Part shown: piece after piece, positions 13,163 to 34,832 of the stretch
Layout of the letters: each line of letters begins with the position of its first letter
Numbering within the stretch: the stretch's first letter is position 1
DNA from: Okeania sp. SIO1I7
GTDB taxonomy: Bacteria > Cyanobacteriota > Cyanobacteriia > Cyanobacteriales > Microcoleaceae
Assembly: GCA_010672585.1 (NCBI GenBank)
Contig: JAAHGF010000006.1
Location: 242,635-306,634 of the forward strand
Length of the DNA stretch: 64,000 nucleotides
Direction of reading: 5' to 3'
Notes under the pieces: model-generated
The model's input: the letters and a program-made list of their open reading frames with translations, nothing else
Databases searched by the model: none
Told to the model about the DNA's origin: nothing
Program-made: the position numbers and the translations under genes

Positions 13163-13735
13163 CTATTCTTAATCGGTTTGTTTATTGAATAAGATTGCTA
13201 TTAATTTATTTTGTATAATACCTACTGTAAAACTCTGGTATTTGACTTTAACAGAGAAAAATTATGATGATTTGATTAAGCTGTGAGTATATAGCAGGGA
13301 ATAGGGAATAGGGAACAGGGAACAGTTGGAAAAACATTTTCTAGTCTAAGATTCGTCATTCGCATAAGTCCTAACTAATTCTTTCTTAGCTATAAATAAA
13401 ATTTTGCCTTACGAAAAATAGCTGATTTTTAGATTAGTTTGATTTTTTAAAGTACATCCGAAAACCTTTGCTATGAATCACAAAAAATATATTTTTAGCC
13501 GTCACTAAAAAAGCTAAATGGTTTGGTAGAGAAATTTTCTACCCCTGTGTGAGTAACTTCAGTTGAAGAGGTAGAGGGAAAAAATTTTACTTACTTACCA
13601 AAAATATCTCATTTCCAGATTAGTTTGATTTTTTTGAGCATCATATTTGACTAAATACTCACATGGATAAAAAAATTTTCTACCCTTGTGTGAGTAACTT
13701 TAGTTGAAGTGACAGAGGAAAAAATTTTACTTAAC
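13163..13735. repeat. Intergenic region holding a tandem duplication of the dndD 3' end
   Basis: Bases about 13533-13665 repeat bases about 13674-13806 with a period of 141. The second copy includes the last codons of dndD, and the first copy preserves those codons and the TAA (for example EMRYFW followed by stop, against EMGYFW in dndD). A third, more eroded copy of the inner part lies near 13410-13480. No independent gene is seen. Confidence 0.75.
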
Positions 13736-15718
13736 TTACCAAAAATATCCCATTTCCAGATTTGTCTGATTTTTTTGAGCATCATATTTGAGTAAATATT
13801 CGTGAGCGATCGCCTCTAAATTACGCAAATTTTCTACCTCTAATTTACCAATTTCAGTATCAGTAGATAAAAGAATAACTTGATGACTAGCAGAAGGGAA
13901 ATAACGTTCTACTAAATTCTGACGATGGGATGAATCTAATCTACCCAAAGGTGTATCAATAGCAACGGGTAAATGTCTACCAGAAACCCTTGCTAAACCC
14001 CATAAAAAAGAAATTGCCAAAAGCTGTTTTTCTCCCGCAGAAATACGATGTTTAGGAACAATTTGCCCTTGATTATCGTAGAGAGAAAGAGCAAAGTTAT
14101 TAGTATCAATAGCCACGCGATGCACCAAATCTGATTTATGCAAAAGATAGCGGAAACATTCAGTAACTTCCATCTCTAGTTTATTCAACTTTTTCAAAGT
14201 TAACTTCTCCTTAAATAACTGCAAAGTTTTCTTCACTTTGCCAGAAGATTCAATGATATTTTGAATATTGTGACGTTCGATAGTTTCATCAGTATAACTA
14301 AATAATTCCTTCTTAGTTTGAGTAATAGCATCCTCCAACTTTTTACAATCGCGATCGGTATTTTCACAAGCAATCTGTATCCTAGCTAACTCAGTTTGTG
14401 CCTCCTGTAAAGCAGTTTCCAAAATTTCATAAGCTTCCGGAGATGCCGCACTTACCAACTGCTTTTCCAGAATATTAATTTCCACTTCAAAATCTTTGAG
14501 ACGAGTTAAATTTTTCCGAGCATTTTTCCGACAATTTTCAATCTCATAGCGCAACAAATTTTCTAGTAAAGTTAATGCTTTCTCATCTGCCAATAACCAA
14601 GATTCATCACTTTGATTAATATCCTCTTCAATCATCAGATTTTCTTGATGAAGAAACGTTTTAATTTTACTAATTTTGCCAGCAGGAATAGACAACTCAT
14701 TCAGATAATTAACTAAACGTCGGTCTCTTTCCTGAAAAGCATCCAAAGCTATTTCTGCTTCATGGCGTAAAATCTCTACATCACCCTGAGAACTTACTTG
14801 TTCCAAAAGAGGAGAAATTAAAGCCAGAGGTAAAGCTCCCGCAGCAAGTTCAATCATTTCCTGACGAGCATTTTCCATATCTAACTCTATATCTTTAAAC
14901 TCTTGTTCTAACTGACTTCTTTCAGCAGCAATTTTTCCCCCTTCCGAAACAAATTTTCTCATGGCTTTTTGCTGTTTTTGTTCAGCCTTTTTTAACTGCT
15001 TTCGCAAATCTTCTAATTTTTCCGTAGCAACTTCCAAATCTGTCTTTTGTTGATGCAGTTTTTGTTCAATTTCCTCTAAATTTTTTAATTCTGTAGTTTT
15101 AGCAATTTGTTTCTTTTTCCGAGTCACTAAAATATCTAAATCTGTTGCCAGACGTTCAGCTAATTCCAGTCCTAATAATGATTGAATTGCATCTACAACC
15201 AAAGGTGGAGGAATTTCTAGTTCAGCCAACTCTTTTACCTGTTCTCCATCAAATAGAAATAAGTTAGAAATTCCCAAAGGTAAGAGATTTTCTATATATT
15301 CATCCCAGGCATTTGCTAAGTAAGAATCAGGCCATTCACCATCAAGAATTCCCAAACTATCTTTGCCATCTTTAGGATTTTTTTCCCAGGTACGAACTAC
15401 GCGATATTCTACAAGTTGGTCGTCTTGAATATGTTCAAAAGCTAATTCAATACGAGTTTTTTCTGTAGGGGGAGTATTGCGGTTTACACATTGAGAAAGA
15501 AAGTCGCCATAAGTTAAATTTCCCCTAGTTGAACATTGGGCGCGATGACCGTAAAGTGCGAGGCGAATAGCATCTAAAAGAGTAGTTTTTCCTCCTCCAT
15601 TCATACCTCCAAATAAGATGATAGGGCGCGGGCGATCAGTAAGGGTAGGGCGGAGATTTATTGTTTGTTTACCGGAGTAGGGTCCGAAATTTTGTAAGAC
15701 GAGTTCTAGGAAAATCAT
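13736..15718 (-). CDS. dndD: DNA sulfur modification protein DndD (SMC/RecF-like ATPase)
   Basis: DndD is an SMC-like ATPase needed with DndA, DndC and DndE to replace a non-bridging phosphate oxygen in DNA by sulfur. The 660-residue length is usual for the family. Walker A is GGMNGGGKTTLLDA near residue 37; the DndD hallmark LFLFDGEQVKELAE lies near residue 154. A long charged coiled coil covers about residues 195-520. The signature SAGEKQLLAISFLWGLAR and Walker B PVAIDTPLGRLD are near residues 565-600. The ATG at 15718 is followed directly by the family start MIFLELVLQNFGPYSG. It would be cotranscribed with dndC but is now separated from it by an IscB element. The 3' end is tandemly duplicated downstream. 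Confidence 0.92.
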   Translation of the reverse strand: MIFLELVLQNFGPYSGKQTINLRPTLTDRPRPIILFGGMNGGGKTTLLDAIRLALYGHRAQCSTRGNLTYGDFLSQCVNRNTPPTEKTRIELAFEHIQDDQLVEYRVVRTWEKNPKDGKDSLGILDGEWPDSYLANAWDEYIENLLPLGISNLFLFDGEQVKELAELEIPPPLVVDAIQSLLGLELAERLATDLDILVTRKKKQIAKTTELKNLEEIEQKLHQQKTDLEVATEKLEDLRKQLKKAEQKQQKAMRKFVSEGGKIAAERSQLEQEFKDIELDMENARQEMIELAAGALPLALISPLLEQVSSQGDVEILRHEAEIALDAFQERDRRLVNYLNELSIPAGKISKIKTFLHQENLMIEEDINQSDESWLLADEKALTLLENLLRYEIENCRKNARKNLTRLKDFEVEINILEKQLVSAASPEAYEILETALQEAQTELARIQIACENTDRDCKKLEDAITQTKKELFSYTDETIERHNIQNIIESSGKVKKTLQLFKEKLTLKKLNKLEMEVTECFRYLLHKSDLVHRVAIDTNNFALSLYDNQGQIVPKHRISAGEKQLLAISFLWGLARVSGRHLPVAIDTPLGRLDSSHRQNLVERYFPSASHQVILLSTDTEIGKLEVENLRNLEAIAHEYLLKYDAQKNQTNLEMGYFW

Positions 15719-15865
15719 TTCAGTTTTTTTAGGGAGTGGGGAATAGGGAATAGGGAGTAAGAGGAAAGGTAGTGGGTTAACTAACTCAGAAGTTTCTACG
15801 GAATGCTCCGCAAACAGAAGTCAGGAGTCAGAAGTTATTTTTGTAACGAGGATTTGAGATCCGCT

Positions 15866-17182
15866 TCAAAAATATTGCGCCTTAAAAGGCGAGGTTTTAG
15901 ACCCATAAACATAAGCGTAGCCATCCTTTTTGTGAATATGTTGACAATATTTGTGGCTAATTCCTTGTACTAAACCATTCTTGGTTTTGATGTTGAAACT
16001 GCCTGTAGTGCGTACAGCAACTCTCCCTACATAGACGCCTTGTTTCTTACCTTTAGTCACAATAGCTTTGACGATATCCCCTGTTTGATATCCTTTAATA
16101 AACTTGAACCGGGGGACATAACGAACTGGAAATCCATATTTATCAGTACGACACATCTGACGTGAGCCATGTCCTGTGGCGATGACAATTAAAGGTTTTT
16201 TTACCTCCTTGATAATTAGCCGTTCAGGAGTAGAAATACCTACACAAGCTGCATCTAACCAATGAGTTTTAGGCAGGTTTTGACTACACCTATTGAATTT
16301 TGTTAACCCACCACTACCTACTTCTACAGGTAGTTCAGTTAACTTTAATTCGTTGTACAACTTCCACCGAGTTGCATTTACGGCTGCTGCATCAGCGAGT
16401 GGCTTCTTAGCTTGAGATAAAATCCGTTGCAGAACATTGGGCTTTCTAGATAAGAACTGTTCAATTTCTTGATTGGACTTGGCCTGATTGCAACTATGAC
16501 AGGAAATAGCTAAATTAGAAACTCGATTGGAACCACCTTTAGATTTAGGAACAATGTGTTCTATTTCTAACTGGGTATCCGTCGCACCACAATAAGCGCA
16601 TTTACGATGCCATTTTTCTAGTAAATATTCCCGAATTTCGTAACCAAAAAGTGTACCTTGTTGATACTCAACACCTGAAATTTCGGGGTTTTCTAATTTC
16701 TGAGTGTCGAACCTAACTAACTCTTGAGATATACCTGTAATTGGACATAATTGAGTTAGCTTTTTAACCCAAGTCAAGATATTTTGTATTCTTGACATTA
16801 AACTAGGGGGTAACCACCCGGACGACCTTTTTCTATTCAAGAATCTTGGCTGACGATAACGAGTTTTGCGATTTCTACGAGAACGTCTTAAAGTTCTACG
16901 TTTGGTTAAACTATCTCGAATTTGAAACCCTCTGTGAGTGAGTTCAGCTCCCCAGATTATTCTGTTGCTTTGAACAATTGCTAAACCAGTTATTTTTGCT
17001 CCGGGGTCTATTTTTAGTTGATGGTTGTGAGTAATTGGTTCACTTACCTCCTCAGTCAAAATGATTGTTAAGGGGTATCGACGTAGAACTTTAGCTTTGC
17101 CAGTCCTGAGTAAAATTCTAGCTCTGGCAGGCTTGCAGGGGTCTAAAGGTTGTCGATTTTTATTAAGTACAAATACACGCAT
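15866..17182 (-). CDS. iscB: IscB RNA-guided HNH/RuvC endonuclease
   Basis: IscB is the transposon-encoded ancestor of Cas9 that cuts DNA guided by an omega RNA. This 438-residue copy looks intact. An N-terminal PLMP-type domain (residues 1-42, MRVFVLNKNRQPLDPC) is followed by RuvC-I with Asp59 in IDPGAKITGLAI. An arginine-rich bridge helix lies at about 88-115. A zinc-bound HNH domain (CAYCGATDTQLEIEHIVPKS then CHSCNQAKSN) is at about 192-240. RuvC-III is KTHWLDAACVG near 310, and the C-terminus is basic. Just upstream lies a structured leader that fits the HEARO RNA. No transposase gene is present. The element sits between dndC and dndD on their strand. Confidence 0.93.
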   Translation of the reverse strand: MRVFVLNKNRQPLDPCKPARARILLRTGKAKVLRRYPLTIILTEEVSEPITHNHQLKIDPGAKITGLAIVQSNRIIWGAELTHRGFQIRDSLTKRRTLRRSRRNRKTRYRQPRFLNRKRSSGWLPPSLMSRIQNILTWVKKLTQLCPITGISQELVRFDTQKLENPEISGVEYQQGTLFGYEIREYLLEKWHRKCAYCGATDTQLEIEHIVPKSKGGSNRVSNLAISCHSCNQAKSNQEIEQFLSRKPNVLQRILSQAKKPLADAAAVNATRWKLYNELKLTELPVEVGSGGLTKFNRCSQNLPKTHWLDAACVGISTPERLIIKEVKKPLIVIATGHGSRQMCRTDKYGFPVRYVPRFKFIKGYQTGDIVKAIVTKGKKQGVYVGRVAVRTTGSFNIKTKNGLVQGISHKYCQHIHKKDGYAYVYGSKTSPFKAQYF

Positions 17183-17440
17183 AATTGGTGTGTTCTCCTA
17201 TTGCTAGGGTAAAGTTCGCTTTGACAATGTTTTAATCGCTTGTGAGGTTAGCCACACTTTCTTAACCCTCTAAAAATGTTTAATGACTAACGGTAGAGCT
17301 ACAGACTAGCGACGCATCCATAGGTACCATGACGATAAAAACGTAGGAGATTTTACTCCTGAGTCTGGTCAACTAGAGCTTAAAAAAGCCCACGCTATAT
17401 TCCTTGATAATTAGCGCTGGGTTGTTGACAACTTTCTAGT
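17183..17440 (-). ncRNA. HEARO/omega RNA of the IscB element, with 5' guide
   Basis: The 250 bases upstream of iscB show no gene but several stem-loops expected of a HEARO RNA. They include a long first stem at 17388-17421 (CCCAGCGCTA pairing with TAGCGTGGG), AGGAG/CTCCT at 17345-17360, and GTGTGG/CCTCAC at 17241-17256. The 3' end runs into the ribosome binding site TAGGAGAACA of iscB. In this system the guide lies at the RNA 5' end. Here it would fall within about 17422-17440 (minus strand TAGAAAGTTGTCAACAA region), inferred rather than mapped. Confidence 0.72.
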
Positions 17441-17496
17441 CATTTCTAACTTCTGACTTCTGACGCGCGTTAATTCTCCCCCACTCCCCCACTCCC

Positions 17497-19053
17497 TTAC
17501 TCAATATCTGCTGAACTTTGACGAGAAAATTTCATATTTGCCCAACTTAATTGTTTAATTTTTTCTGAGACTTTTCCTTGTTCGACAGCTTCTTTGAGGT
17601 CTCTTTTATTATGAGCGTTTTGAATAGCTTCTTCCTTGGAACGAGAACTTGTTTCAAAACATTGTTCGAGACTTTCGTAAATCTTATATCGGTGAGACTT
17701 AATATAATATTGCCTCTCTGTATCTAACAGTTTTGCCATAAGTTCAAGGTGCATTTCATCCCCATTACATATTTCTTCTAATACTGACCATTCATCACTA
17801 CCTAAAAGACTTATTCCTGCACCAGGACGACAGTCTTCAAATTTCTCTCCTGTTACTTCTTCATATATACGAGGTAAACTATCATCAAACTCGTGTTTTT
17901 CTTCTAACCAAATGCGTCTAATTTCACTCAATTCTTCCAGAGAAATGAGAGTAATATCTCGCATATTTTCTGGAGCAGTTTCACGAATTTTTGTTTGAGC
18001 TTCTAACAGTTTTCTCAGTAAAGTATCTCGCCATTCTTTTTTGTACGGACCGGGTATTGGTTCTACAGAAACTTCACCATCTACATTCCGTTCAAATAGT
18101 TGAACTGTCCCCCAAATTCGCCTAAAATCTCTTTTATCTCTATCGGAAATATCTAGTTCCCGACGCAAATCTACAAGAGGTTGTAACCATTCTTTTTCTT
18201 CATCATTTTGAATCATTGCTGACATAGATTTATCACTATCTACTAAGGTACAAACCCAGCATCCAAAACGAGAACTTCCACAACTAGGAGTAGAAGTATC
18301 AACTACTAACGGACATTCATTATCTTCCGTTGCACCTCGATACATTGCTAGTAAATCTTTATTACTATTTCCCCAAGGATTTTCCCACTGCATTAAATAC
18401 AGCCAAACTTCATCAGTTCGCCAGTCTTCAATAGGGGAATAAATTAAAGAATTAAGTAAATTGGCATTAGGACTAAGGCGTTCCCGAACTCGTTTTTCTT
18501 CTAGTCTTTTCATTGTTCTAGCGCGGTTAACACTTTCAGCTTTACGAGTACCTAAAACTAGGATAACTTCTCCATTAGTTCGTACAGCATTACGAATAAA
18601 AAGATTAGATGGTTCAATTTTTAAACGTCCCGTACACCATCTAAATTTCAGACGGGGTGCAGGATAACCTTTACCAATTAAACCTACCCAATATGTATAT
18701 TCAATATCTGGTTGTAGAAGGTGAGTTTCTATTGGCATTTTCTGTTCTTGGGCAACTCTATCAATGTTTTTTAGAGATTGTTTAACCCAAGCAGAAACAT
18801 AAGGATTTTCTACTCGTGTATCAGTGGTAATTACATAGATTTTTTTAGTTCTTTTTTCTACTGGCAAACCAGCGATCGCATTCCATATAAGTTGTAAAAC
18901 TGCGGTACTATCTTTTCCTCCAGAATATCCAACAATTAAGGGAATTTCATCAAGGCAATATAATTCTTGAATTTCTATAGTTAGCTTTTCTATATCTTTG
19001 ATTAGTTCAGCAGTTGTCCGCTCTGGAAAAAGAGATTTTTGTATTCCTACCAT
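17497..19053 (-). CDS. dndC: DNA sulfur modification protein DndC (PAPS-reductase-like Fe-S protein)
   Basis: DndC belongs to the PAPS-reductase/ATP-pyrophosphatase superfamily and activates DNA for sulfur insertion. The P-loop SGGKDST is at residues 44-50, after a helical N-terminus. The Fe-S cysteines are visible as WCTGRLK near residue 144, an ECPLV segment, and PSCGSSRFGCWVC near residue 270. The 518-residue length is usual for the family. The ATG at 19053 lies 1.36 kb from the divergent dndB. Downstream on the same strand come the IscB element and dndD. Confidence 0.93.
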   Translation of the reverse strand: MVGIQKSLFPERTTAELIKDIEKLTIEIQELYCLDEIPLIVGYSGGKDSTAVLQLIWNAIAGLPVEKRTKKIYVITTDTRVENPYVSAWVKQSLKNIDRVAQEQKMPIETHLLQPDIEYTYWVGLIGKGYPAPRLKFRWCTGRLKIEPSNLFIRNAVRTNGEVILVLGTRKAESVNRARTMKRLEEKRVRERLSPNANLLNSLIYSPIEDWRTDEVWLYLMQWENPWGNSNKDLLAMYRGATEDNECPLVVDTSTPSCGSSRFGCWVCTLVDSDKSMSAMIQNDEEKEWLQPLVDLRRELDISDRDKRDFRRIWGTVQLFERNVDGEVSVEPIPGPYKKEWRDTLLRKLLEAQTKIRETAPENMRDITLISLEELSEIRRIWLEEKHEFDDSLPRIYEEVTGEKFEDCRPGAGISLLGSDEWSVLEEICNGDEMHLELMAKLLDTERQYYIKSHRYKIYESLEQCFETSSRSKEEAIQNAHNKRDLKEAVEQGKVSEKIKQLSWANMKFSRQSSADIE

Positions 19054-20411
19054 TTTTCAATACTCCTAAAATTTTTTTTAATTTATTCTGTATGTTTATG
19101 TTTATGTTTATGAGATAAATACATTTTGGCGATGCTATTGTCAAGCTTCTATTCTGGGGAAAGATTCTTTTTCATTTGGCATATGCTAAATTTTTTTCCC
19201 TATGTAATTCTTGATTTCCACTCATTTATAGCACTAGCTAAAACATCTGTATTTTCACTATTTATTTCTGATAAACCAGTAGATTGAGTAAATAGGTAGG
19301 CAAAATTAAATCTAAAATAACTATCAAAGTTAAATTTACCATAACTATTCTAATTTCTCCTTTTTTAACTAGCTATCAGCTATTAGCTATCAGCCTAAAA
19401 ATTTGTGCATAGACTTCTATAATTTGTTTAATTTGATGAGGGGTTTAAATCCCCTTCTAAAAAACTGATTGCTGAACTGCTATTTGCGGAGCATTCCGTC
19501 AGGAAACGCTTTTTAAATGGCAAAATTAAGTTGATTAGTTTCTCAGTTATACCTGCTACTTTCATTAATTGATAATGGATAATGAATAATGGATAATTAC
19601 CTCTGGTTAAAACAGTTACGAAATTGAATATAAGCAAATTTGATTTCTTCACAGGAGTCGATTGGATATGGTTAGGAAACCCATCAATCCCACCCTTCGA
19701 GAAGCTCCAAAGAGAGAACTCCGTTCCGCTGTCGCGTTTCGCGTCAGCGTTGCGTTACGCCAGTTTTGCGAAGCAAAAGCAAACGACCGCTTTTTTATCC
19801 TTCAAAGGAGAGGCTTTAAACCTAAATTCGATTAATTATCAATTATCCATTTTGATCTTATACTTATACAAAATAAATAAGTTTTTAATCCCTTTTTTTT
19901 GCAGAAAAAAATAAACTGTATATTAGATACTATTTCTATTTTCAGTAAGGATGTATTCGTCAACTAAAATAGCTGATATTCAAATTTATTAAGTAGTAAG
20001 TTTTAGGAAAAATACTAATAAATTATTCATTTTTCTCTAAACACTATGCTCTGTGAAAACTAGCTGTTAATAGCTGAATGGCTATTATTTTGATGGTATA
20101 GCACTACGCATTAAAATTAGGACAGCTAAGAAACTTCAAAATATTACAGTTAAAATTTTTGACTCTAGCTGATAGCTGAATGTTGTTTGCGGAGCATGAC
20201 AAACGGAAATGCTTATAGCTATAAAAAGACATCAATATTCATGCCTCATGTTCCATCGGTTAGTATTGACATAATAAATAGTATATGATAAAAAAATCAC
20301 TATACAATTAACAATTATACTGACTCAAAAGTTTTTAAAAACGTTTGTTGACAAAAATTTATATATGTAGTGATTTTCAAAAATTATTAAAAATATTTCC
20401 CCAAATCAGTG
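19054..20411. other. Divergent intergenic region between dndC and dndB, 1.36 kb
   Basis: The promoters of both operons must lie here, although no convincing -35/-10 pair can be singled out. It contains small dispersed repeats of the TTTGCGGAGCATTCCG type at about 19478 and 20186. Fragments of the family 1 terminal repeat (GATAGCTGAATG) occur near 20170, with simple repeats elsewhere. I see no gene, including no DndE-like frame. Confidence 0.55.
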
Positions 20412-22013
20412 ATGAAAAAGACCAATAAACCCACATCAGAAATAGCAAAAGAAATTTTAGAAAATGATAATCGAGAAAGAGAAGCGATCGCTATCCTTTT
20501 AGACAAACATATAGGCAAAGATGACAGACTTTTAGTACAAAAAACCATGATGGGAAAAACGGAAGCTTACATCGGTTCTGTCACTCTAGAATGGTTAGAC
20601 AGTCGTGTACGTTTTGCCTCTCAACTACCATTATTTCGGCAAAAATTTGATGTAGAAACAGATAATATAATTCGTGACGCAGAAACAATAGATGAAATTC
20701 AACAACGTCCCCTAGATTGGTCTCGTCAAGCTCCATTAACCCTATATTTAGCAACAAGAAAAGCACATAAATTTCCAGCAGTATTAGTAGTAATTAGCCC
20801 CAGTTGGGTAGATAATCCCAAGGCAGAAGAATGGAATAAAAATGGAGAAGCAAATAAATCTGCCACTGATTTTTTACCCCTAGATTCAGCCGGAAAAGTA
20901 GGATTATTAGACCTACGTTTAGAAGTAGCAGTATTTGCCCTAGACGGTCAACATCGACTGATGGGAATTCAAGGTTTAATGGAATTAATCAAAACAGGTA
21001 GGTTGCCTAGATATAACAAACAAAAAAAACCAGTAGGTGCAGCTATTAACATTGATGATTTAGCGGAAACCCATCATATTGAATTGCCAGAATTACAAAA
21101 ATTAGCTTACGAACAAATAGGTATAGAATTTATTCCGGCAGTAGTAAAGGGAGAAAGTAGAGCACAAGCACGACGGAGAGTTAGGTCAGTTTTTGCTCAT
21201 GTAAATTTGACTGCTGTAAAATTAAGTAAAGGGCAGTTGGCATTATTAAATGAGGATGATGGATTTGCCATTGTGGCTAGAAAAACAGCAATTTATCATC
21301 CTTTATTAAAAGAGAAAGATGATAGAAATCCACGAGTGAATTGGGATAGTGCAACTGTGGCAACTAAGTCTACTGTTTTAACAACTCTTCAGGCAATTCA
21401 AGAAATGTCTGAAAGATATTTAAAACCTCGTTATCCTCATTGGAAACCTTCAGATAGAGGTTTAATTCCCATGCGTCCTGAAGAAGAAGAATTAGAAGAG
21501 GGGCTAGAGGAATTTATGTTGTTTTGGAATTATTTATCTAATTTACCTAGTTATTCAAGACTAGAAAATGGTGCCGAAACTCCAGAATTGAGAAGATTTA
21601 GTTTTGAAATAAAACCAGGAGAAGGTCATGTTTTATTTCGCCCCGTCGGACAAATTGCTTTTGCTGAAGCTCTAGGAATTTTAATATACAAAAAAGGATT
21701 TTCTCTGGAGGAGATTTTTCAGAAATTAAATAAGTATGATGTGGATGGTGGTTTGAGTGGAATAGAATTTTCTGACTCTATTTGGTATGGGGTTTTATAT
21801 GATTTTAATCGGAAGCGAATGTCGGTAGCTGGGAGAGATTTGGCTATGAGATTGTTTATCTATATATTAGGTGGAATTTCTGACAAAATGGAACGAGCAG
21901 AAATTCGTCGAGAGTTGGCAGAAGCAAGGAGAATTGGGGATAATCAAGCTGTAGATTTTCAAGGTAAGTTTGTGGAATTAAAAAAGGTAGGGTTGCCAAA
22001 AATTTTGTCTTAG
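20412..22013 (+). CDS. dndB: DNA sulfur modification regulator DndB (DGQHR domain)
   Basis: DndB restrains DNA phosphorothioation and is thought to act as a regulator of the dnd genes. The DGQHR hallmark is ALDGQHRLMGI near residue 178 of a 533-residue product. It is followed by FIPAVVKGE, an arginine-rich QARRRVRSVFAHVN segment and a C-terminal helical part ending in EMAR/RREL-type charged helices. A GTG three bases before the ATG is an alternative start. It is transcribed away from dndC, the arrangement expected for a regulator with its target operon. Confidence 0.9.
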   Translation: MKKTNKPTSEIAKEILENDNREREAIAILLDKHIGKDDRLLVQKTMMGKTEAYIGSVTLEWLDSRVRFASQLPLFRQKFDVETDNIIRDAETIDEIQQRPLDWSRQAPLTLYLATRKAHKFPAVLVVISPSWVDNPKAEEWNKNGEANKSATDFLPLDSAGKVGLLDLRLEVAVFALDGQHRLMGIQGLMELIKTGRLPRYNKQKKPVGAAINIDDLAETHHIELPELQKLAYEQIGIEFIPAVVKGESRAQARRRVRSVFAHVNLTAVKLSKGQLALLNEDDGFAIVARKTAIYHPLLKEKDDRNPRVNWDSATVATKSTVLTTLQAIQEMSERYLKPRYPHWKPSDRGLIPMRPEEEELEEGLEEFMLFWNYLSNLPSYSRLENGAETPELRRFSFEIKPGEGHVLFRPVGQIAFAEALGILIYKKGFSLEEIFQKLNKYDVDGGLSGIEFSDSIWYGVLYDFNRKRMSVAGRDLAMRLFIYILGGISDKMERAEIRRELAEARRIGDNQAVDFQGKFVELKKVGLPKILS

Positions 22014-29529: not shown

Positions 29530-30918
29530 ATGAATATATTAGTAGAAAATATAGGCATTCCTAAAATACCATCTAATTTAAAATTACGACCCTATCAAGA
29601 GCAAGCTATTAATAATTGGTTTACAAATAGAGGTAGGGGAATTTTGAAGATGGCAACAGGTAGTGGAAAAACAATAACTGCCTTAGCGATCGCTACTCAA
29701 CTTTATCAAAAAATTGCTTTACAAGCATTAATTGTGATTTGTCCTTACTGTCATTTAGTAACTCAATGGGCAAGAGAATGTGAAAAGTTTAATCTTAAAC
29801 CAATTCTCGCTTTTGAGAATGTACATACTTGGCAAAATCAACTTTCTACTACACTTTATAATATTCATTCTGGCTATGAAGAATTTATTACTGTTATTAC
29901 TACAAACTCTACTTTTATTTCAGATAGTCTCCAATCTCAGATTAAATATTTTCCTGAAAAAACTCTGATTATTGGGGATGAAGCACATCATTTAGGTTCG
30001 CCCAAGTTAGAGAAGAGTTTACCAAAAAATATTGGTTTAAGACTTGCTTTGTCTGCCACGCCAGAAAGATATTTTGATGACCAAGGAACTACAGCGATTT
30101 TAGATTATTTTGGTGAAGTATTACAGCCTGAATTAACTTTAGCTGATGCTATTAGACAAGGTGCTTTAGCTCGTTATCTTTATTATCCAGTTTTAGTAGA
30201 ACTAACCGAAGCAGAAAGTCGCGCTTATGCTAAATTAACCTCGAAAATTGGTTGGGCATTATTATTATCAGAGAAAGAAAATGTAGAAATAGAAAAAGAA
30301 GATTTAACAGCTTTATTAATTCAGCGTTCCCGTTTAATCGCTGCAGCAAAAAATAAATTAACAGCATTAAAAACATTAATGGCAAACCGTTTACAAACCA
30401 GTCATACTTTATTTTATTGTGGGGATAGTTCGGTAGAAACTGAAGATATTTCAAATTTAAGGCAAATGGAAGCGGTAGTAAGAATATTAGGTTATGAATT
30501 AGGTTATCGAGTTAATACTTATACTGCTGAGACTCCAATTAAAAAAAGAGAAAAATTAAGGCAACAATTTGAAAGTGGAGAATTGCAAGGTTTAGTCGCA
30601 ATTAGATGTTTAGATGAAGGAGTAGATATACCAGCAATTAAAAATGCAGTTATTTTGGCAAGTAGTCAAAATCCACGACAATTTATTCAGAGAAGAGGAC
30701 GAATTTTACGACCTCATCCAAGTAAAGAAAGGGCAACTTTATTTGACATGATTGTTTTGCCTCCAGATATGGGTAGAAGTACATTGGAAGTAGAACGAAA
30801 TTTACTTAGAAAAGAGTTGAAAAGGTTCTTAGAATTTGCAGATTTAGCAGATAATTCTGGAGAAGCTAGGAGAAAGTTATTAAAAATTCAAAAAAGATAC
30901 GGATTATTAGATATTTGA
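29530..30918 (+). CDS. Dnd-type restriction helicase (DEAD/DEAH family)
   Basis: The 462-residue SF2 helicase resembles the family tied to DNA phosphorothioation restriction ('dnd restriction' type 1 family in cyanobacteria). The start PYQEQAINNWFTNRGRGILK is followed by Walker A MATGSGKTITALAIA near residue 44. The DEAH box is IIGDEAHHLG near residue 150, motif III is LALSATPER, and motif VI is QFIQRRGRILRPHPS near residue 395. The island contains the Dnd modification genes, so a role in cutting unmodified DNA is plausible. No nuclease domain is fused. It starts at ATG 29530 after an A-rich leader. Confidence 0.85.
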   Translation: MNILVENIGIPKIPSNLKLRPYQEQAINNWFTNRGRGILKMATGSGKTITALAIATQLYQKIALQALIVICPYCHLVTQWARECEKFNLKPILAFENVHTWQNQLSTTLYNIHSGYEEFITVITTNSTFISDSLQSQIKYFPEKTLIIGDEAHHLGSPKLEKSLPKNIGLRLALSATPERYFDDQGTTAILDYFGEVLQPELTLADAIRQGALARYLYYPVLVELTEAESRAYAKLTSKIGWALLLSEKENVEIEKEDLTALLIQRSRLIAAAKNKLTALKTLMANRLQTSHTLFYCGDSSVETEDISNLRQMEAVVRILGYELGYRVNTYTAETPIKKREKLRQQFESGELQGLVAIRCLDEGVDIPAIKNAVILASSQNPRQFIQRRGRILRPHPSKERATLFDMIVLPPDMGRSTLEVERNLLRKELKRFLEFADLADNSGEARRKLLKIQKRYGLLDI

Positions 30919-32523: not shown

Positions 32524-32769
32524 ATGACTCTAGAATACTCAGACAAACCAACCACAACAATATCAAGAATTTTTTCAGAAAAGCATTCAAAGTATGACGT
32601 TAAAACTCAAGCAAAACTGAATAATATTCAAGAACCAATTACTACTTCACCCCCAGAAGTCAAGCAAATTATTGGGCGAGTATTACAACTAGAAAAAGAC
32701 CGACTTTATAAAAAAACTCCTCGAATTAACGATGATATTCTCAAAATTATTAAAGAAGCGGTGCAATGA
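32524..32769 (+). CDS. Small partner protein of the second SMC-like ATPase
   Basis: The 81-residue product has a Thr/Ser-rich N-terminus and a lysine-rich C-terminus with a predicted helical segment (PEVKQIIGRVLQLEKDRLYKK). Its stop overlaps the start of the next gene (ATGA at 32766-32769), a sign of translational coupling. I do not recognise the family. It is plausibly a DNA-binding or adaptor subunit of the ATPase it is coupled to. Confidence 0.75.
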   Translation: MTLEYSDKPTTTISRIFSEKHSKYDVKTQAKLNNIQEPITTSPPEVKQIIGRVLQLEKDRLYKKTPRINDDILKIIKEAVQ

Positions 32770-34832
32770 AATTAATCTCAATTATATTGTGTAACTTTCG
32801 TCAGTTTTACGGCAAAACTCCAGAAATAATTTTGGCATCAGGCCAGAAAAATACAACAATAATTCATGGCAATAATGGTGCAGGTAAAACTACCATAATG
32901 AACGCCTTTACTTGGGTACTTTATGAAAAATTTAGCGCCGCTTTTGTAGTAGAAACTCAACTGGTAAATAAACGAGCAATTACAGAAGCAAAACTTGGTA
33001 AAGCCATAGCTTGTTGGGTAGAAATTGTATTTGAACATGATAATAAACGGTATCAAGCTAAACGTTTATCACGAGCTTATCGGAATGAAAAAAATGAAAT
33101 TGAACATGGTAAAAGTGAGTTATATATGCAAATAGCTGGAGATGACGGACGTTGGTCTCCACCCCCAGAACATCCTGATGATATTATTGGTAGAATTTTG
33201 CCAGAAAGTTTACATAGATATTTCTTTTTTGACGGAGAAAGAATTGAGTATATTGTTAGGGATGACCGGAAAAGTGAAATAGCAGAAGCGACGAAAGAAT
33301 TATTAGGAATTGAAGTATTAAATCGTTCTGTTAGACATTTAGGAGAGGCAAAAAAATCCTTGGAAACTGATTTGAGATTAATTGGTAATCCTGAAACTAA
33401 AAAGCTGCTGAAAGAAAAAAATCAAATTGAACAAGAGATTAATAAATTATCAAAACGCCAAACAGAGATAGAGAAAGAATTACAAAATCATCGAGCAGTT
33501 AAGAAAGAAATTAGTAGTCGTTTAGTAGAATTTAAAGGTGCAGAAGGATTACCCCAACAAAAAGACCAATTAAATCTCCAGATAGTATCAATCAAAGAAC
33601 AAATATTACAAGCTCATCAGGGGTTAAAAAGAGCCATATCAACTCGTGGTTATATGGTTTTCTTGTCAGATGCCATAGAAAAATTCCGAGAAATTTTTGG
33701 TAATTTAAAAGAAAAAGGAGAGTTACCCATAGGAATAAAAAAACAGTTTGTACAACAATTATTAGAAAAACAACGTTGTATTTGTGGAGCTGAATTAACT
33801 ATAGATTCCCAAGGGAGAAAATCAGTAGAAAAATGGATGGAAAAAGCCGAAATTGCTGATGTAGAAGAAACCGCAATTAGAATGAGTATACAGATAGATG
33901 AAATTGACAAACAAGTACTAGAGTTTTGGGATGAAGTTGATAGACAACAAGCTAATATCGAAAAATTGCGTTATCAACTTTCACAGGTTGAAAATGAATT
34001 AGAGTCAGTTCAAAAAAAACTACGAAATTATCCAGACGAAGATATTCAGCAGTTACAAAAACGGTTAGATGAAATAGAAATTAAAGTAGGAAACTTAAAT
34101 AGAGAAACTGGTTCAAATGCTCTACAGCTAGAAACTTTAAATAAAGAAATTAAAATCTTAGATAAACAACTTGATAAACAACAAATGAATGAATTAAAAC
34201 AAGTTTTAGCCCAAAGGCGAATTTCAGCTACTCAAGATGCTATCAATAGATTGATAGAAGTCCGAGGGCGTCTAGAAAAACAGTTTAGAGTCTCTTTGGA
34301 AAAACGAGTACAAGAATTATTTTCAGAAATTTCTTTTACTCCCTATATTCCTAAATTAAATGAAAAATATGAATTAACTTTAGTAGAAAATACTGGTGGA
34401 GAAGACGCCTTAGTTGCCGCTTCTACAGGAGAAAATCAAATCCTCAGTTTGGCATTTATTGGTAGTATTATTGACGAAGTAAGAATCTGGAGTCAAAAAA
34501 ACACTTTAATGGGACCCGATAGTAGCACTTTTCCCATAGTAATGGATTCCCCTTTTGGCAGTTTAGATGAAATTTATCGCAGACAAATTGCCAATATTAT
34601 TCCTCAATTAGCAAATCAATTAGTTGTATTAGTAACTAAAACTCAATGGCGAGGAGAAGTAGCTGAAGAAATGACTAATTATATTGGTAGAGAATATGTG
34701 CTTTCTTATAATTCTCCAAAATTAGATTGTGAAGAAGATGCTATTCAGTTAAGTGGAGAATCTTATCCTTTGGTAAAACGTAGTCCCAATGAATTTGAAT
34801 ATACAGAAGTGCTTGAAGTAGATTATGATTAA
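32766..34832 (+). CDS. DndD/RecF-like SMC ATPase, second paralogue
   Basis: The 688-residue protein is an AAA/SMC-like ATPase distinct from dndD. Walker A is HGNNGAGKTTIMNAF near residue 38. A FFFDGERIEYIV segment near residue 152 parallels the LFDGEQ motif of DndD. Coiled-coil stretches lie at about 205-460. They hold a central CICGAEL pair near residue 338, in the manner of a zinc hook as in Rad50. The ABC signature STGENQILSLAFI is near residue 555 and Walker B IVMDSPFGSLDE near residue 595. It is coupled by 4-bp overlap to an 81-residue gene and follows the Dnd-type helicase, so it probably belongs to a second defence or Dnd module. Confidence 0.83.
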   Translation: MKLISIILCNFRQFYGKTPEIILASGQKNTTIIHGNNGAGKTTIMNAFTWVLYEKFSAAFVVETQLVNKRAITEAKLGKAIACWVEIVFEHDNKRYQAKRLSRAYRNEKNEIEHGKSELYMQIAGDDGRWSPPPEHPDDIIGRILPESLHRYFFFDGERIEYIVRDDRKSEIAEATKELLGIEVLNRSVRHLGEAKKSLETDLRLIGNPETKKLLKEKNQIEQEINKLSKRQTEIEKELQNHRAVKKEISSRLVEFKGAEGLPQQKDQLNLQIVSIKEQILQAHQGLKRAISTRGYMVFLSDAIEKFREIFGNLKEKGELPIGIKKQFVQQLLEKQRCICGAELTIDSQGRKSVEKWMEKAEIADVEETAIRMSIQIDEIDKQVLEFWDEVDRQQANIEKLRYQLSQVENELESVQKKLRNYPDEDIQQLQKRLDEIEIKVGNLNRETGSNALQLETLNKEIKILDKQLDKQQMNELKQVLAQRRISATQDAINRLIEVRGRLEKQFRVSLEKRVQELFSEISFTPYIPKLNEKYELTLVENTGGEDALVAASTGENQILSLAFIGSIIDEVRIWSQKNTLMGPDSSTFPIVMDSPFGSLDEIYRRQIANIIPQLANQLVVLVTKTQWRGEVAEEMTNYIGREYVLSYNSPKLDCEEDAIQLSGESYPLVKRSPNEFEYTEVLEVDYD

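What the first reader, a model, noticed from the sequence alone, without database searches (positions are those of the whole stretch)
13736..19053. RNA-guided IscB nuclease inserted between dndC and dndD
The minus-strand order is dndC, IscB with its HEARO RNA, then dndD. dndC and dndD normally stand side by side and are both needed for DNA phosphorothioation. Here a 1.6-kb OMEGA element sits between them in the same direction, with intact RuvC and HNH residues. Either it is a recent neutral insertion that lets read-through continue, or an RNA-guided nuclease has become part of a modification-restriction locus. Seen: order, strands, intact motifs. Inference: functional link.
Basis: partly seen in the sequence, partly recalled or inferred. 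Interest (0 to 1): 0.8.

Follow-up and report, generated by a model that had tools for sequence, protein, structure and literature searches.

The report
Gene-cutting hitchhiker stuck between dnd genes
A mobile RNA-guided nuclease landed in a repeat array between two DNA-modification genes of a marine cyanobacterium and later lost one of its ends; its guide still matches the repeats that sister strains carry at this spot, so it looks like a stranded selfish element rather than a working part of the modification system.

Summary
On the minus strand of an Okeania-like genome lie dndC, a HEARO/omega RNA, iscB and dndD, all with strong family matches. The proposed functional link is not supported. 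Of 47 family relatives with both dnd genes on one stretch, none has iscB between them. In three of four congeners the interval is mostly a non-coding array of ~136-150-bp repeats. The 15 bases just upstream of the omega RNA (the presumed guide) match this repeat exactly, and in relatives the match is followed by ATGA, the motif next to which related elements insert. So the element most likely inserted into a repeat unit.

A deletion removed the element's right end and the native iscB stop, so the protein now runs 13 residues into an interspersed repeat. And the array is gone: this genome has no guide+ATGR site with two or fewer mismatches except the element's own flank, while three congeners have 3, 16 and 9 at the locus.

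Most likely this is a stranded, still guide-bearing OMEGA element whose RNP, if expressed, would cut sister alleles of the dnd locus and not its own. Cutting and self-driven array loss are inferred, not shown.

The parts
13736..15718 (-). dndD, 660 aa
   Evidence: TIGR03185 701 bits; 59 of 61 family genomes have a match at E<=0.001
   Evidence: a copy with its start lies at the same place before dndD in Okeania hirsuta L040; end at 15777 read by eye
15866..17182 (-). iscB ORF, 438 aa = native 425 aa plus 13 aa read from the interspersed repeat
15906..15907 (-). deletion junction: element ...GTTTA joined to ...TATGGG, two shared bases (TA); the native stop, right end and motif are lost
   Evidence: L122 alignment and interspersed-repeat alignment
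17209..17429 (-). HEARO/omega RNA scaffold; 17429 is the left end of the element (GTCAACAACCC)
   Evidence: RF02033 156 bits; left ends of 18 related loci shown beside it; L122 homology begins at 17432-17429. Single-sequence fold only slightly better than shuffles, z -1.65
17430..17445 (-). presumed 16-nt guide; 15 of 16 bases (17430-17444) identical to the dndC-dndD repeat unit of sister strains
   Evidence: guide length recalled
17446..17496 (-). residual left flank after dndC, with a fragment resembling the inverted tail of the interspersed repeat; no further array sequence found
   Evidence: resemblance read by eye
17497..19053 (-). dndC, 518 aa
   Evidence: TIGR03183 692 bits
20409..22013 (+). 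DGQHR/DndB-like gene, divergent from dndC
   Evidence: PF14072 46.9 bits; TIGR03187 188.7 bits

Best explanation
An OMEGA (IscB/HEARO) element inserted into one unit of the tandem-repeat array between dndC and dndD, directly 5' of an ATGA motif, in the orientation set by that motif. The bases just left of the insertion became its guide. Later deletions removed the array on both sides. On the right the deletion took the element's right end and the native iscB stop; on the left it ended 15 bases before the omega RNA, so the guide survived. The element is therefore probably immobile, but it still encodes a full omega RNA, a guide and a nuclease with its catalytic residues. If expressed, the complex should cut chromosomes or incoming DNA that carry the unoccupied array (sister strains; other chromosome copies at the time of insertion) and not its own locus. 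Shown: gene order, family identities, guide match, motif in empty sites of related elements, dnd interval without iscB in relatives, missing right end, absent array. Inferred: that the array was once there and was deleted, expression, cleavage, homing, and the cause of array loss. It is not part of the Dnd pathway.
For: No iscB in the interval in 47 of 47 relatives with both genes. Pattern guide15+ATGAAA at <=2 mismatches: 38 hits in 4 of 60 family genomes, none in this genome; compared with the dndD coordinates, all 38 lie in the dndC-dndD interval; backward-read control 2 hits. 17 of the 38 are exact. For a related element (L124, 69% protein identity to ours) the joined flanks match uninterrupted in 17 of 60 genomes, and 8 of 10 fetched such loci show guide|ATGAAAG at the junction. 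For the closest copy, three congeners and the window's own genome show the unoccupied site ...TCTGT[A/T]|ATGGCA, so the motif is ATGR as far as seen. The closest copy ends GTT TAA after residue 425, while ours runs into an interspersed repeat. dN/dS between the two is 0.21. In 388 order genomes, at two scored candidates per genome, only one other, G043, holds a copy above 90% DNA identity; the next is 74%.
Against: The 13-residue tail or loss of the right end may have killed the protein or RNA; no expression data. The right flank of the window copy no longer shows the motif, so the motif at this site is read from relatives only. The closest copy's own right side does not match its unoccupied site. 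In 9 further genomes the flanks of the L124 site match as two pieces 0.1-0.45 kb apart, not examined. A 15-base match to an AT-rich array is not out of reach alone: random 68-base pieces of the window reached 14 in 2 of 200. One of the four congeners, G043, has no exact array unit, so absence of the array need not be a loss. Array absence could be a mis-assembly; reads were not available.
Confidence: 0.82

Rival explanations
1. Co-option: IscB with its omega RNA has become a functional part of the dnd locus, for example a guided nuclease coupled to phosphorothioation.
For: Same strand and order; catalytic residues kept; the guide is the only array sequence found on the left flank; loss of the right end would fix it in place.
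Against: 0 of 47 relatives share the arrangement. Guide15+ATGA has 0 exact hits in the viral contigs. dN/dS of 0.21 covers the whole history of both copies and says nothing about this site.
Confidence: 0.06
2. Dead remnant: the nuclease is inactive because of the altered C-terminus, or is not expressed, and everything here is decay.
For: Right end and native stop lost; the closest copy is broken by a 1.35-kb insert.
Against: Full-length ORF; full HEARO model at 156 bits, against 146 bits in the closest copy; all 425 native positions present.
Confidence: 0.3
3. The array loss is unrelated to the nuclease: arrays here change length freely and the interspersed repeats recombined, or part of the array never existed in this lineage.
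For: Interval length varies widely without IscB (23-2384 bp); congener G043 has no exact array unit either; both breakpoints touch interspersed-repeat-like sequence. By dndC, G042 (88.4%) is further from this genome than G043 (92.2%), so the relatives do not fall into one simple order.
Against: By dndD the three congeners with target units, G040, G041 and G042 (93-96%), are closer than G043 (91.6%), and they hold 3, 16 and 9 units with <=2 mismatches; this genome holds none.
Confidence: 0.55

Closest known systems
IscB/HEARO OMEGA elements (Rfam RF02033, NCBIfam NF040563)
   Same: HEARO RNA 5' of the ORF on the same strand, presumed guide just outside the left end, RRXRR + HNH protein, insertion next to an ATGR motif
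   Different: Right end and native stop deleted; 13-aa tail from a host repeat; guide derived from a tandem-repeat unit present 3-16 times at this locus in three congeners
Copy in genome G043 (L122), same genus
   Same: 94% DNA identity over the omega RNA and ORF
   Different: Different locus; iscB split by a 1.35-kb insert; native stop kept
TnpB/IS200-IS605 retention and gene drive (PMC11870625, passages read)
   Same: Guide records the insertion site and targets copies lacking the element
   Different: Shown there for TnpB in plasmids; here IscB, chromosomal, multi-copy target, no activity data
Cyanobacterial dnd systems (PMC8569181, passages read)
   Same: dndC and dndD present, gene order loosened; that paper reports various configurations and no dndFGH in Cyanobacteria
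   Different: No IscB in the cluster is mentioned in the passages seen

Membership tests
IscB nuclease | Full-length match to curated IscB model | tested here: met
   NF040563 483 bits vs cut-off 175, model 1-314 of 314; PF14239 RRXRR 251 bits, HNH 49.5 bits
IscB nuclease | RuvC I-III and HNH catalytic residues | tested here: met
   D59, E154, H209, H307, D310 align with the same residues of a solved IscB, 11hx (two alignments shown); catalytic roles are recalled
IscB nuclease | HEARO/omega RNA directly upstream, same strand | tested here: met
   RF02033 17209-17429(-), 156 bits
IscB nuclease | RNA-guided cleavage | not testable with these tools
   needs biochemistry
Mobile OMEGA/IS200-IS605-type element | Intact left and right ends | tested here: not met
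   Left end conserved; right end deleted at 15906/15907
Mobile OMEGA/IS200-IS605-type element | Y1 transposase in the element or in trans | tested here: inconclusive
   No second gene in the element; 10 Y1_Tnp matches, some partial, elsewhere in the genome. Few HEARO nucleases sit beside TnpA according to PMC9755519 (passages)
Dnd phosphorothioation system | dndC, dndD and dndE present | tested here: met
   dndC, dndD; dndE on another contig, 138 bits, cut-off 71.85
Dnd phosphorothioation system | DndFGH restriction module | not tested
   Not searched genome-wide. 10 other window proteins were scanned: no DndF/G/H in the rows shown (for one protein 25 of 58 rows shown); two matched PbeA and PbeC
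Dnd phosphorothioation system | Phosphorothioate in DNA | not testable with these tools
   needs mass spectrometry

The most novel reading that the evidence does not exclude
A self-purging landing: an RNA-guided nuclease that inserts into a tandem array gains a guide matching every other unit, cuts them on all chromosome copies, and selects for deletions that erase the array and strand the element. What remains is an immobile IscB that excludes or converts the dnd alleles of sister strains, a locus-specific homing agent at a DNA-modification locus.
Probability: 0.2. Interest if true: 0.65.

Novelty: new member of a known kind. Interest (0 to 1): 0.4.

Why it matters
It shows how a chance neighbour of a defence-type locus can look like a new system. 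It also gives a natural case where the guide of a chromosomal OMEGA nuclease has many matched targets at the allelic site of sister strains and none at home, which makes the homing and retention idea testable for IscB outside plasmids.

Tried and rejected
Phage targeting: exact guide15+ATGA against viral contigs gave 0 hits; inexact matches were not searched there. Recurrence: a DNA search of 388 order genomes found only G043 above 90%; whether IscB sits in dnd loci outside the family was not tested. The idea that the element inserted at dndD's own ATGA start was rejected, because the guide is not the sequence before dndD. The idea that the 90-bp repeat was the element's right end was rejected: it has 39 further places in a capped list, the six with flanks fetched (L003-L008) show no iscB within 1.5 kb, and O. 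hirsuta carries it at the same place before dndD without iscB.

Literature: nine of ten searches concerned IscB or HEARO. One search (Okeania + IscB) found 0 papers. One search was badly posed (a word stem with whole-word match) and was repeated, which listed 3 papers with both IscB and phosphorothioation; I saw only titles and abstract starts and opened none. So I cannot say that IscB in a dnd locus is unprinted, only that these listings did not show it. Of PMC8569181, PMC9755519 and PMC11870625 I saw passages. Weinberg 2009 and Altae-Tran 2021 were not seen here; guide length, the role of the motif in IscB cutting and polyploidy of filamentous cyanobacteria are recalled.

Full report
Observation. 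The window lies in a genome of 9.48 Mb in 109 contigs, in one genus with G040-G043, whose contigs agree in length with records named Okeania. Minus strand, 5' to 3': dndC 17497-19053, HEARO RNA 17209-17429, iscB 15866-17182, dndD 13736-15718. The three proteins pass curated NCBIfam cut-offs and the RNA passes its gathering score. The IscB aligns with a solved IscB across RuvC and HNH; residues D59, E154, H209, H307 and D310 are kept (catalytic roles recalled). The divergent gene 20409-22013 is DGQHR/DndB-like. dndE is on another contig, in line with the various cyanobacterial configurations described in PMC8569181 (passages read).

Relatives. 59 of 61 family genomes have a DndD match at E<=0.001. 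I examined the dnd stretch of 57 of the 60 other genomes; the three left out had no match (G001, G036) or only weak fragments (G015). 47 held dndC and dndD on one stretch; 0 of 47 had iscB between them; the interval was 23-2384 bp. In the other 10, dndC was not on the stretch held (9) or dndD was too short (1). In the four congeners the interval is 882-2384 bp without an ORF of 100 residues; in three of them (G040, G041, G042) it is mostly a tandem array with periods of about 136-150 bp. So dndC and dndD are already far apart in this clade, and a same-strand insert need not disturb them.

Where the element landed. The closest copy, in G043, is 94% identical from 17432 down to 15906, and the common left end is GTCAACAACCC at 17429. 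The 15 bases just upstream, AATGACTAGAAAGTT, match the array unit of G040, G041 and G042 exactly, and there they are followed by ATGAAA in most units. With up to 2 mismatches, guide+ATGAAA has 38 hits in 60 family genomes: G040 3, G041 16, G042 9, G056 10; by their coordinates all lie in the dndC-dndD interval; the backward-read control has 2 hits. 0 of 20000 shuffles of the 15-mer occur in the three arrays, although random 68-base window pieces matched the G041 array by 14 bases in 2 of 200 cases.

The motif. In the 10 related elements with a CCAA[A/G]GGGG right end shown, the DNA after the right end begins ATGA in 10 of 10 (read by eye; the pattern search finds the same number). For one of them (L124), the joined flanks match uninterrupted over at least 285 of 300 bases in 17 of 60 genomes; in 9 others the flanks match as two pieces 0.1-0.45 kb apart, which I did not examine. 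Of the 10 uninterrupted loci fetched, 8 show guide|ATGAAAG at the junction; 2 were not resolved by my simple search. For the closest copy, three congeners (G040, G041, G042) and the window's own genome show the unoccupied site with ATGG after the guide; G043's own right side has been rearranged. The motif is thus ATGR as far as seen. The array unit has this form, so it is the unoccupied target.

What happened afterwards. The closest copy ends ...DGYAYV-stop, 425 residues. In the window, sequence homologous to the element stops at 15906, within two bases (TA) shared with an interspersed repeat that has 39 further places in this genome in a capped list. The ORF runs on 13 codons into that repeat. 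O. hirsuta (L040) has the same repeat at the same place before dndD but no iscB, and G042 and G041 lack it there. The simplest account is that a deletion removed the element's right end, its motif, the array to its right, and the first bases of the repeat. On the left, only the 15 guide bases remain of the array. In this genome no guide+ATGR site with <=2 mismatches exists except the element's own flank, which lacks the motif; 20 sites have 3 mismatches. The congeners also have a few such sites off the locus with 2 mismatches: G040 2, G041 2, G042 1, G043 3.

How it most likely works. OMEGA nucleases record their insertion site in the guide and cut copies that lack the element; PMC11870625 (passages read) shows a gene drive of this kind for TnpB in plasmids and describes the activity as akin to homing endonucleases. 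By the same logic this IscB would cut the unoccupied dnd interval of sister alleles, at up to 16 places (<=2 mismatches), and spare its own. Landing in an array means that the flanking units are targets too, so deletions that remove them would be favoured. This fits the clean absence of the array in the one genome with IscB, but it is inference: arrays also vary without IscB, and G043 lacks exact units.

Functional link with Dnd. Against: no recurrence, no exact viral target, orientation set by the motif. For: only the retained guide and intact catalytic residues. dN/dS of 0.21 (44.5 synonymous, 35.5 non-synonymous differences) reflects the nuclease's past selection as a mobile element, not this locus.

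Limits. One genome, no reads, no RNA data; the array absence could in principle be an assembly fault. The motif at this site is taken from relatives. IscB near dnd genes outside the family was not examined.

Noticed in passing
Loci L086, L088, L089, L091, L093, L097, L105: In 10 related elements where the CCAA[A/G]GGGG right end is followed by ATGA, that ATGA opens a frame of at least 100 codons in 7, against 92 of 630 ATGA sites in the same loci: the element seems often to sit right before a start codon, with a Shine-Dalgarno-like GGGGGAAG supplied by its right end (by eye). Over all 31 loci scanned, 14 had such a frame near the right end, against 117 of 1240 random 150-base stretches.
   Followed up: partly
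L134, L023, L022, L058 and L135, dndC-dndD intervals: In other genera the dndC-dndD interval can hold a same-strand Y1 (IS200-like) transposase ORF of about 150 aa (four sequences read, Pfam run on one) or a PDDEXK_3 ORF of 187 aa (one read and run), so this junction has taken in other genes too.
   Followed up: partly
window 29530-30918 (+) and 32766-34832 (+): A PbeA-like helicase (557 bits) and a second DndD/PbeC-like ATPase (1073 bits) lie 10-16 kb from dndC: a possible restriction partner. A distant DndD paralogue also lies 9-12 kb from dndD in L131, L133, L135 and L136.
   Followed up: no
window 13598-13660: The 3' end of dndD (residues 640-660) is partly duplicated in tandem just downstream; some relatives carry more copies (e.g. 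L041).
   Followed up: no
L044 2389-2517: A C-terminal iscB fragment lies about 0.4-0.55 kb downstream of dndD on the opposite strand in a Trichodesmium MAG.
   Followed up: no
L122 (G043 C62): The closest iscB copy is split by a 1.35-kb insert; its bases in the output look TnpB-like (by eye).
   Followed up: no
G016, G017, G020, G022, G025-G027, G034, G035: At the point where the L124 element sits, nine other genomes have 0.1-0.45 kb of extra sequence between the same two flanks, as if this motif is hit repeatedly.
   Followed up: no
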